Part shown: positions 63,239 to 64,000 of the stretch, piece by piece | Layout: each line of letters starts with the position of its first letter | Numbering within the stretch: the first letter of the stretch is position 1 | NCBI RefSeq assembly: GCF_944324995.1 | Contig: NZ_CALUYL010000002.1 | Location: 91,148 to 155,147 of the forward strand | DNA: 64,000 nucleotides | Direction: 5' to 3' | DNA from: an uncultured Mailhella sp. | GTDB taxonomy: Bacteria; Desulfobacterota; Desulfovibrionia; Desulfovibrionales; Desulfovibrionaceae | Made by a program: the position numbers and the translations under genes | The notes under the pieces: generated by a model | What the model was told of the DNA's origin: nothing | Databases searched by the model: none | What the model saw: only the letters and a program-made list of their open reading frames with translations

Positions 63239-63922
63239 CTACACCTCCCGGATCTTAAGAATGTTGTAGGAAATGTTTTCGTCGAACACGTCGGTTTCCT
63301 CCACGCGCTTGACGTAGTTCACCACGCGAATGGTCACGGGCAGCACGACGATTTCATACAGTGTCTTGAGCGCGGTCTGGGCGAGCATCATGGGGATCAT
63401 GGCCGAGAGCGGCAGCACGCCCGCAAAGGCGCAGGGGAAAAAGATAAGGGAATCCACGCCTTCGCCCACCAGCGTGGAAAGAATGGCGCGGGCCGAAAAA
63501 TGACGTCCGCCGGAAGCCACCTTCATGCGGCTCATGACGTAGGCGTTGAGGAAGGAGCCCGCCAGGAAGGCAAGAAAGCTCGCCGCGGCGATGCGCGGAG
63601 CCAGGCCGAACAGATAATTGAAGTGCGCCTCTCCGTCCCAGAACGGCGCGGACGGCAGAAAGACGGCGATCTGACCGAGGGCGGCCACAAGAAAATTCAT
63701 GGCGAAGCCCGTCCAGATGATGAAGCGGGCCCTGCGGAAGCCCCATACTTCGGCGATGCAGTCGTTGATGATGTAGGAAACGGGAAAGATGATGACGGCC
63801 GCAGGCAGGGCAAGCGAGCCCAGCATGAAGATTTTGGCGGCCAGCAGATTGGAAATGATGAGACAGGTGCAGAAGACGATGCCGAGCAACATGAACGTTG
63901 CCGAAAAGGAATGTTGTTTCAT
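63239..63922 (-). CDS. yhhQ: Queuosine precursor transporter (YhhQ/QPTR family)
   Basis: A 227-aa inner-membrane protein with about six helices. [24 protein letters not shown] is the family core, and [17 protein letters not shown] a second typical block. It imports preQ0, preQ1 or queuine. The ATG at 63922 is one base behind a preQ1-I-like pseudoknot and has no Shine-Dalgarno site; another ATG (63892) also lacks one. It is the first gene of the queuosine operon, so the riboswitch controls import and synthesis together. Confidence 0.9.
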
Positions 63923-63923
63923 A

Positions 63924-63954
63924 GCTTGTTTTTTACGTGGTTTTCAAGCACACG
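63924..63954 (-). promoter_or_regulatory. preQ1-I-like riboswitch, proximal copy
   Basis: Read on the minus strand: CGTG, T, GCTTG, AAAAC, CACG, TAAAAAA, CAAGC. CGTG/CACG form P1, GCTTG/CAAGC the pseudoknot P2. The U after P1 and the AAC just before its 3' strand fit the ligand-contact positions of preQ1-I (U6 and C15 in the Thermoanaerobacter aptamer), and the tail AAAACAAG matches that aptamer. Ends one base before the AUG. Confidence 0.75.
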
Positions 63955-63956
63955 GC

Positions 63957-63987
63957 GCTTGTTTTTTACGTGGTTCTCAAGCACACG
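63957..63987 (-). promoter_or_regulatory. preQ1-I-like riboswitch, distal copy
   Basis: The same 31-nt pattern, with one difference in the loop (GAGAAC where the proximal copy has GAAAAC), two bases upstream of the proximal copy. All pairing and contact positions are kept, so both copies look functional. Confidence 0.72.
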
Positions 63988-64000
63988 GCTCAGGGTGGAC

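What the first reader, a model, noticed from the sequence alone, without database searches (positions are those of the whole stretch)
63924..63987. Tandem preQ1-I-like riboswitches in front of a queuosine transport/synthesis operon
Two 31-nt elements, 2 bases apart and differing at one loop position, fold as H-type pseudoknots: CGTG/CACG stem, GCTTG loop pairing with CAAGC, A-rich linker between. A U follows the first stem strand and AAC precedes the second, as in preQ1-I aptamers. The operon encodes a queuosine-precursor transporter, QueC and QueF (which makes preQ1). The proximal copy ends 1 base before the AUG with no Shine-Dalgarno site, so ligand binding could block the start codon directly. 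Two copies suggest a steeper or two-step response.
Basis: partly seen in the sequence, partly recalled or inferred. Interest (0 to 1): 0.85.

Follow-up and report, generated by a model that had tools for sequence, protein, structure and literature searches.

The report
Twin preQ1 switches at start codon
A bacterium of the Mailhella group carries two near-identical 31-letter RNA elements back to back just before the start codon of its queuosine-precursor transporter operon; they are predicted to fold as pseudoknots that bind the precursor preQ1 and would shut off translation where no Shine-Dalgarno site is present, and the same element, in single copy, sits before queuosine genes in many Bacteroidales.

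Summary
Two 31-nt elements, 33 nt apart in register, end 1 nt before the ATG of a QPTR (YhhQ-type)-QueC-QueF operon. Tandem copies occur in 6 of 19 genomes of the genus (Mailhella group), only single copies in the other 13. The same element, single, precedes QPTR or QueC in many Bacteroidales (model hits in 52 of 393 genomes). P1 shows compensatory changes at two of four pairs; P2 is supported by complementarity and a few compensatory variants. Residues that contact preQ1 in solved class I riboswitches are in place (L1 U, L2 "AC", A-rich L3, top G-C of P2). Rfam RF00522 misses the element, but also misses the crystallised E. coli preQ1-I type III switch, so that refutation test carries little weight. 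The Mailhella transporters nest, in two clades, inside the Bacteroidales tree, so gene and switch were probably imported together. Most likely: preQ1-I-type translational OFF switches that hide the start-codon region of an mRNA with no adjacent Shine-Dalgarno site, doubled in some species. A 2022 survey lists preQ1-I among classes not found in tandem. Ligand, direction of switching and cooperativity are untested. The repeats can also pair into a long rod that includes the AUG, which may couple them or simply follow from repeating a self-complementary unit.

The parts
63957..63987 (-). Distal preQ1-I-like element: P1 5' 63984-63987, L1 U 63983, P2 5' 63978-63982, L2 AGAAC 63973-63977, P1 3' 63969-63972, L3 UAAAAAA 63962-63968, P2 3' 63957-63961
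   Evidence: Sequence; R1 model 53.4 bits, E 2.6e-7; 91-100% identical between tandem genomes while the 60-nt leader is 60-95% identical
63924..63954 (-). Proximal preQ1-I-like element: P1 5' 63951-63954, L1 U 63950, P2 5' 63945-63949, L2 AAAAC 63940-63944, P1 3' 63936-63939, L3 UAAAAAA 63929-63935, P2 3' 63924-63928
   Evidence: Sequence; R1 model 55.2 bits, E 1.1e-7; ends 1 nt before the ATG
63955..63956 (-). 2-nt junction between the repeats (GC on the minus strand)
   Evidence: Sequence; same in all 6 tandem genomes
63920..63987 (-). Predicted alternative nested 'rod' fold of the two repeats, pairing the distal 5' strands with the proximal 3' strands and the AUG
   Evidence: MFE -17.9 kcal/mol for window 63920-63990, z -2.7, 2 of 200 shuffles as low; -17.5 to -17.9 in five other tandem genomes
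63239..63922 (-). QPTR / YhhQ-type queuosine precursor transporter (227 aa), first gene of the operon
   Evidence: PF02592 E 5.6e-50; TIGR00697
62547..63236 (-). QueC, preQ0 synthase
   Evidence: PF06508 E 9.1e-80; TIGR00364
62090..62554 (-). QueF-II, preQ1 synthase
   Evidence: PF14489; TIGR03139 E 2.8e-52

Best explanation
Two near-identical RNA elements, predicted to fold as class-I-type H-type pseudoknots, stand in tandem directly before the start codon of the QPTR-QueC-QueF operon and most likely act as preQ1-sensing aptamers that repress its translation when preQ1 is plentiful. Shown by sequence and comparison: the complementary strands with P1 covariation, the pocket residues, the position next to the AUG, the absence of a Shine-Dalgarno site there, the queuosine-gene linkage and the tandem in 6 of 19 genomes. 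Inferred: preQ1 (made by QueF in the same operon) docks between P1 and P2, pairs with the L2 cytidine, and locks the A-rich L3 and the CAAGC strand into the fold; the ribosome then loses the A-rich single strand and start-codon region it would use in place of a Shine-Dalgarno site. Inferred for the tandem: two aptamers in series steepen the response, possibly because both are unfolded together in a rod formed by inter-repeat pairing, so that ligand binding at one repeat frees the strands of the other.
For: P1 covaries: 29 both-side-change cells against 10.4 +/- 2.1 in shuffles and a covariation score of 0.221 against 0.053 (0 of 500 as high for each), 99.7% of cells paired; slid controls give 0-10 such cells and 20-64% paired. 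P2 variants keep pairing: AUUG/CAAU in L266 and L310, UUCC-A-G/C-A-GGAA in L305 with an A.A mismatch. Pattern hits with 3-4 P1 pairs have an ATG within 9 nt and an ORF over 60 aa in 54 of 58 cases, hits with 0-2 pairs in 0 of 22. All 57 downstream proteins scanned, from 59 model hits, are PF02592 (47) or QueC (10). The model has no hit in 246 other genomes of the phylum at E <= 0.02. Pocket rules match. The distal copy is conserved above its leader.
Against: No ligand or expression data. Rfam RF00522 gives no hit. Two of the five covariation measures (pairs with a both-side change, 2; further pair types, 2) do not exceed the shuffles, and the sequences are related. P2 is almost invariant, so its covariation rests on a handful of sequences; L256 and L264 have a broken outer pair, L308 and L309 an inner mismatch. 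7 of 101 Bacteroidales elements do have an SD-like tetramer within 20 nt of the ATG. In one search the P2 strands or the inter-repeat rod score better than P1; the rod also pairs the AUG, and so do two of the four one-copy folds, so the ligand-free ON state is not obvious. No cooperativity was tested.
Confidence: 0.78

Rival explanations
1. The single proximal copy does all the regulation; the distal copy is a recent duplication with little effect of its own.
For: 13 of 19 genomes of the genus have only single copies. No second copy within 400 nt was found in any of 189 non-Mailhella loci holding an element (places are partly repeated, and a divergent copy could be missed). Close relatives G007, G008 and G010 have one copy.
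Against: Between the six tandem genomes the distal unit is 91-100% identical while the 60 nt before it are 60-95% identical. Differences fall in L2 and one L3 position, not in P1, P2 or pocket bases.
Confidence: 0.3
2. The tandem is one composite switch: without ligand it forms a rod that hides the AUG, and preQ1 binding converts it to two pseudoknots, so it might even act as an ON switch.
For: MFE rod -17.9 kcal/mol including the AUG, z -2.7; the same rod in five further tandem genomes.
Against: The rod follows from repeating a self-complementary unit. Single-copy relatives manage without it. Induction of uptake and synthesis by the end product would be unusual feedback.
Confidence: 0.15
3. 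The repeats are DNA operators for a transcription factor, not RNA aptamers.
For: Tandem direct repeats near a start codon can be operators. The sequence is highly conserved.
Against: Compensatory changes preserve P1 while the sequence changes. Spacing to the ATG is 2 nt after CAAG in 24 of 26 leader loci of the Mailhella type. The element lies downstream of a conserved promoter-like block seen by eye (the consensus scan did not score it).
Confidence: 0.04
4. A preQ1-I-type aptamer that senses another 7-deazaguanine (preQ0, queuine, CDG) or guanine.
For: The L2 cytidine reads the guanine face common to these compounds, and the genes handle preQ0 and preQ1. Discrimination of preQ0 differs between class I types: the E. 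coli type III strongly prefers preQ1, unlike type II (PMC10622847 abstract).
Against: QueF in the operon makes preQ1, the usual class I ligand; no pocket residue compared departs from the class.
Confidence: 0.12

Closest known systems
preQ1 class I type II riboswitch (Tte, B. subtilis)
   Same: H-type pseudoknot; AC before the P1 3' strand; U after the P1 5' strand; A-rich L3; G-C pair on top of P2; relatives with non-canonical P2 steps
   Different: P1 of 4 bp; no Shine-Dalgarno in P2' (CAAG); P2' ends 1-2 nt before the AUG in most of the genus; not recognised by RF00522; tandem in part of the genus
preQ1 class I type III riboswitch (E. coli yhhQ, PDB 8fza)
   Same: Controls a YhhQ-type transporter; AC at the specificity base; minimal aptamer; also missed by RF00522
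   Different: Type III has UU after P1, a pyrimidine-rich loop and an AAGG Shine-Dalgarno in P2'; here U plus G/A/U, a CUUG strand, and CAAG
preQ1 class I type I riboswitch (Can)
   Same: H-type pseudoknot; represses without strong Shine-Dalgarno burial ('indirect occlusion')
   Different: Type I has UC before the P1 3' strand and binds two preQ1 in one pocket; here AC and two separate elements
Pseudo-cooperative tandem riboswitches (e.g. TPP, AdoCbl; glycine as dual aptamer)
   Same: Two copies of one aptamer in series before one gene set
   Different: preQ1-I is listed there among classes not found in tandem (Table 3); here the repeats are 33 nt apart with a 2-nt linker

Membership tests
preQ1 class I riboswitch | H-type pseudoknot, helix P1 | tested here: met
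   P1 99.4% of cells paired, 2 of 4 pairs with both-side changes in 43 distinct sequences; the other 2 never vary
preQ1 class I riboswitch | H-type pseudoknot, helix P2 crossing P1 | tested here: met
   Complementary in all 19 leaders found by protein similarity alone. With P2 left free, 46 of 57 matches read CTTG; the other 11 and L271 were read on: AUUG/CAAU (2) and UUCC/GGAA with an A.A mismatch (1) are compensatory, but L256 and L264 have a broken outer pair, L308 one C.A and L309 one A.G. In A1 itself P2 was fixed by the search pattern, so it says nothing there
preQ1 class I riboswitch | Pocket residues: L1 uridine, L2 specificity cytidine, L3 adenines, top G-C of P2 | tested here: met
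   All present in the 19 loci found by protein similarity. L1 U in 43 of the 46 distinct pattern matches with 3-4 P1 pairs; the 3 without it were dropped and have no ATG within 10 nt. AC, the A-run and CAAG were fixed in that pattern. Residue roles from PMC10622847 and PMC11625349
preQ1 class I riboswitch | Leader of queuosine synthesis or transport genes | tested here: met
   57 of 57 downstream proteins scanned are PF02592 or QueC, from 59 hits; L253 and L270 gave no ORF to scan
preQ1 class I riboswitch | Match to Rfam RF00522 | tested here: not met
   No hit at E <= 10 in the window's last 2 kb; 0 of 18 Bacteroidales loci at the gathering score; 0 of 149 Bacteroidales genomes over cut-off. 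The model also gives no hit to the E. coli yhhQ leader, the crystallised member, so it is not a defining test
preQ1 class I riboswitch | Binds preQ1 with high affinity | not testable with these tools
   Needs in-line probing or ITC
preQ1-I type I | UC before the P1 3' strand | tested here: not met
   AC in the 19 loci found by protein similarity; rule from PMC11625349
preQ1-I type II | AC before the P1 3' strand | tested here: met
   rule from PMC11625349. The full published type II consensus (McCown 2014) was not available
preQ1-I type III | UU flank of P1, pyrimidine-rich loop, AAGG Shine-Dalgarno in P2' | tested here: not met
   U then G/A/U, CUUG strand, CAAG; rule; E. coli leader read
Tandem (pseudo-cooperative) riboswitch | Two complete copies of one aptamer in one leader | tested here: met
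   33-nt period in the window and in five other genomes of the genus
Tandem (pseudo-cooperative) riboswitch | Steeper dose response than a single aptamer | not testable with these tools
   Needs dose-response reporters

The most novel reading that the evidence does not exclude
A start-codon-gripping branch of preQ1-I riboswitches that works without a Shine-Dalgarno site evolved in Bacteroidales, crossed phyla with its transporter gene at least twice, and in Mailhella was doubled into a coupled switch: the two aptamers are folded away together in one rod that pairs the AUG, and preQ1 drives an all-or-none strand exchange from the rod to two locked pseudoknots.
Probability: 0.27. Interest if true: 0.82.

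Novelty: new variant of a known kind. Interest (0 to 1): 0.68.

Why it matters
A 2022 survey of tandem riboswitches lists preQ1-I among classes not found in tandem (PMC9481103). A 2024 review predicts that riboswitches controlling translation will turn up in bacteria that do not use a Shine-Dalgarno site, and warns that standard searches are weak there (PMC11625349). This element would be both: a minimal, 31-nt aptamer next to an AUG with no Shine-Dalgarno, in natural single and doubled versions. It makes two open questions testable with short RNAs: how a ligand blocks initiation without hiding a Shine-Dalgarno, and what a second identical aptamer adds. It also shows that RF00522 misses a sizeable group.

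Tried and rejected
Rfam at the gathering score and at E <= 10 found nothing at the element; I did not take this as refutation because the E. coli type III leader is missed too. A consensus promoter scan of the leader found none; a conserved TTGCCT-17-CATAGT block is seen only by eye. A phylum-wide P2-free pattern search gave 5 of 395 genomes, one of them (L276) without a queuosine gene. Nine further genomes of other Desulfovibrionaceae genera matched the family pattern; their loci L064-L072 did not appear among elements with full P1 pairing and are taken as chance. Three sequences with 3 or more P1 pairs were dropped by eye before alignment A1 (46 to 43); checked afterwards, none has an ATG within 10 nt. 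The family label missed many QPTRs (my motif was too strict), so Pfam was used instead. The SD count in the window (24 of 41 long ORFs) rests on crude ORF calls and is not leaned on. Other-Desulfovibrionales rows of the tree are crude ORF picks with long branches.

Full report
What is there. On the minus strand the window ends with two 31-nt units, 63987-63957 and 63954-63924, separated by 2 nt and followed by 1 nt and the ATG (63922) of a 227-aa transporter. They differ at one L2 position. The transporter is PF02592/TIGR00697, followed 2 nt on by QueC, which overlaps QueF-II by 8 nt. The QueF product is preQ1.

The genome. The window is the end of a contig (G000:C2). Another contig of the same assembly (C15, L190) ends in the same tandem and supplies the upstream leader. 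A same-species genome (G223) has the tandem inside a 3.17-Mb contig, so it is not an assembly artefact. Two genus mates, G009 and G010, have contigs of the same length as public records titled Mailhella sp. (L080, L133), hence 'Mailhella group' for this genus.

Distribution near home. The best transporter homologue was sought by protein similarity only. In the own genome, in G001-G017 of the genus and in one neighbouring genus (G029) it carries the element directly before its ATG: 19 of 19 loci L006-L024. Of five second paralogues fetched at 64-66% identity, four carry one good copy and one (L042) a decayed one; a third, 34%-identical paralogue of the own genome (L038) shows none. A pattern search of 288 genomes of the family found the element in 19 of 19 genomes of the genus and 2 of 3 of genus g13; nine further genomes of other genera match the pattern without full P1 pairing. 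The tandem is in 6 of the 19 (G000, G223, G004, G011, G014, G015), always with a 33-nt period. A model of the element (R1) gave no hit at E <= 0.02 in the 246 other genomes drawn from the phylum.

Distribution far away. Of the 80 examined, hits with 3-4 P1 pairs had an ATG within 9 nt plus an ORF over 60 aa in 54 of 58 cases, hits with 0-2 pairs in 0 of 22. Model R1 (43 distinct sequences) hit all 23 genomes chosen because they hold elements, at best E 9e-8 to 4e-6. Three weaker matches followed: E 0.014 (L269) and 0.76 (L271), both before QueC, and 0.49 (L270), which looks like chance. R1 hit 52 of 393 genomes drawn from the Bacteroidales order at E <= 0.02. Of the 59 matches then read in detail (56 new ones and the three just named), 57 had a downstream ORF that was scanned: 47 are PF02592 and 10 QueC. 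L253 had no ORF of 150 aa or more, nor had L270.

Structure. P1 is CGUG/CACG, AGUG/CACU, AGAG/CUCU or CGAG/CUCG. Two of four pairs change on both sides: 29 cells against 10.4 +/- 2.1 in shuffles, 0 of 500 as high; 99.7% of all cells pair; sliding the partner by 1-3 columns drops pairing to 20-64%. The number of pairs with such a change and the number of further pair types do not exceed the shuffles, and the rows are related, so this is good but not overwhelming evidence. P2 was fixed by the first pattern, so I searched again with P2 free: 52 of 393 genomes, 57 matches, of which 46 read CTTG. The other eleven, and L271, were read on. They include AUUG/CAAU (L266, L310), UAG/CUA with one A.G (L309), CUU-A-G/C-A-AAG (L271) and UUCC- or UUCU-A-G with C-A-GGA (L273, L274, L286, L305, L306), where the strand carries an AGGA Shine-Dalgarno-like sequence. 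L308 has a C.A beside the A.A, and L256 and L264 a broken outer pair. The A.A mismatch beside the top G-C pair recalls the Tte aptamer (its sequence is recalled; the review says only two of four Tte P2 steps are canonical).

Pocket. In solved class I structures a cytidine of L2 reads the guanine face of preQ1, and uridines of L1 and adenines of L3 read the other edge (PMC10622847 section 8). In Tte a G-C pair of P1 floors the site and a triple on a G-C pair of P2 roofs it (PMC11625349 section 4). The element has each at the matching place. By the review's rules it has the AC of types II and III, not the UC of type I, and lacks the UU flank and AAGG of type III. I call it a preQ1-I type II-like variant with a 4-bp P1.

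Why Rfam misses it. RF00522 gives no hit at E <= 10 at the window's element, in 8 Bacteroidales loci or in the 8 loci; 0 of 18 loci reach the gathering score, and 0 of 149 Bacteroidales genomes hold a match over cut-off. The same model gives no hit to the E. coli K-12 yhhQ leader, which carries the linker letters printed for the crystallised riboswitch. Among 14 control genomes only B. subtilis is over the cut-off.

How it would work. In 24 of 26 Mailhella-type leader loci 2 nt separate CAAG from the AUG; in 97 of 101 Bacteroidales cases 2-6 nt. Bacteroidetes lack Shine-Dalgarno sites, and A at -3, -6, -12 and -13 favours initiation in Flavobacterium (PMC6847099, passages). In the 101 Bacteroidales cases -3 is A in 62, -6 is A in 76, and 7 have an SD-like tetramer within 20 nt. 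So L3 and P2' are the stretch a ribosome would need free; ligand-locked folding would hide it. This step is inferred. The type I switch is reported to repress without strong Shine-Dalgarno burial (section 9 part 1).

The tandem. Between the six tandem genomes the 60 nt before the repeats are 60-95% identical, the distal repeat 91-100%, the proximal 94-100% (the G000 proximal unit in that call lacks its last base, at the contig end); within the 31-nt units the changes fall in L2 and one L3 position. Both copies thus look constrained. Folding without pseudoknots gives a rod in which distal GCUUG, ACGU and CAAGC pair with proximal CAAGC, ACGU and GCUUG and the AUG is paired: -17.9 kcal/mol, z -2.7 in the window, -17.5 to -17.9 in the five other tandem genomes. 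Four one-copy relatives give -2.8 to -5.0; two of these also pair the AUG. The rod competes with both aptamers at once, which would couple them. It is also what a repeat of a self-complementary unit yields, so I treat it as a hypothesis.

Origin. In a tree of 124 transporter proteins the Mailhella-type proteins fall into two clades, each joined to Bacteroidales rows (97/96 and 98/92 support for the joining forks); other Desulfovibrionales homologues are mostly far off, on long branches. The window protein is 66% identical to its nearest Bacteroidales row; in the survey of 59 relatives, matches in genera other than its own and g13 are 24-40% identical. Import of gene plus switch from Bacteroidales, probably twice, is the simplest reading; some deeper forks of the tree are open.

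Literature. PMC9481103 (passages and section 40) lists preQ1-I among classes not found in tandem. PMC11625349 (abstract, sections 4, 9 part 1, 11 and passages) predicts riboswitches that act without a Shine-Dalgarno. Full-text searches for preQ1 riboswitch with tandem, Desulfovibrio, Bacteroides and Bacteroidetes, for tandem preQ1 phrases, and for riboswitch with Mailhella listed no title or abstract that reports this element (one search listed 30 of 61 papers). I opened eight papers, most by passages only; none that I saw mentions it. McCown 2014, which the review cites for the three types and for Bacteroidota members, is not held, so part of the Bacteroidales group may already be counted there.

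Noticed in passing
L190, L191, L007-L012, L193 (leaders); also L018, L022, L023: A GGAGG lies 44-68 nt upstream of the element in 9 of 9 leaders of the window's ortholog clade (AAGGAGG in 8 of 9) with no consistent start codon after it, and in 15 of 26 Mailhella-type leaders within 120 nt at any distance; perhaps a ribosome standby site.
   Followed up: partly
window 63988-64000; L190 end: The assembly breaks at the tandem: contigs C2 and C15 both end in it.
   Followed up: yes
L216, L221, L257, L258: In some Bacteroidales the element stands about 70-90 nt before the QueC start, too far for direct start-codon blocking, so another expression platform is likely.
   Followed up: partly
L273, L274, L286, L305, L306: Bacteroidales elements whose P2 3' strand is CAGGA(A/G), a Shine-Dalgarno-like sequence in a phylum said to lack them.
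   Followed up: partly
L278, L279, L280: Sub-cut-off RF00522 matches in two Bacteroidales genomes that look like ordinary preQ1-I elements; gene context not read.
   Followed up: no
L042 (G014 paralogue leader): A decayed version of the element (CGCGAGCTTGAAACCCCGTATAGCCCAAAGCC) before a second transporter copy.
   Followed up: no
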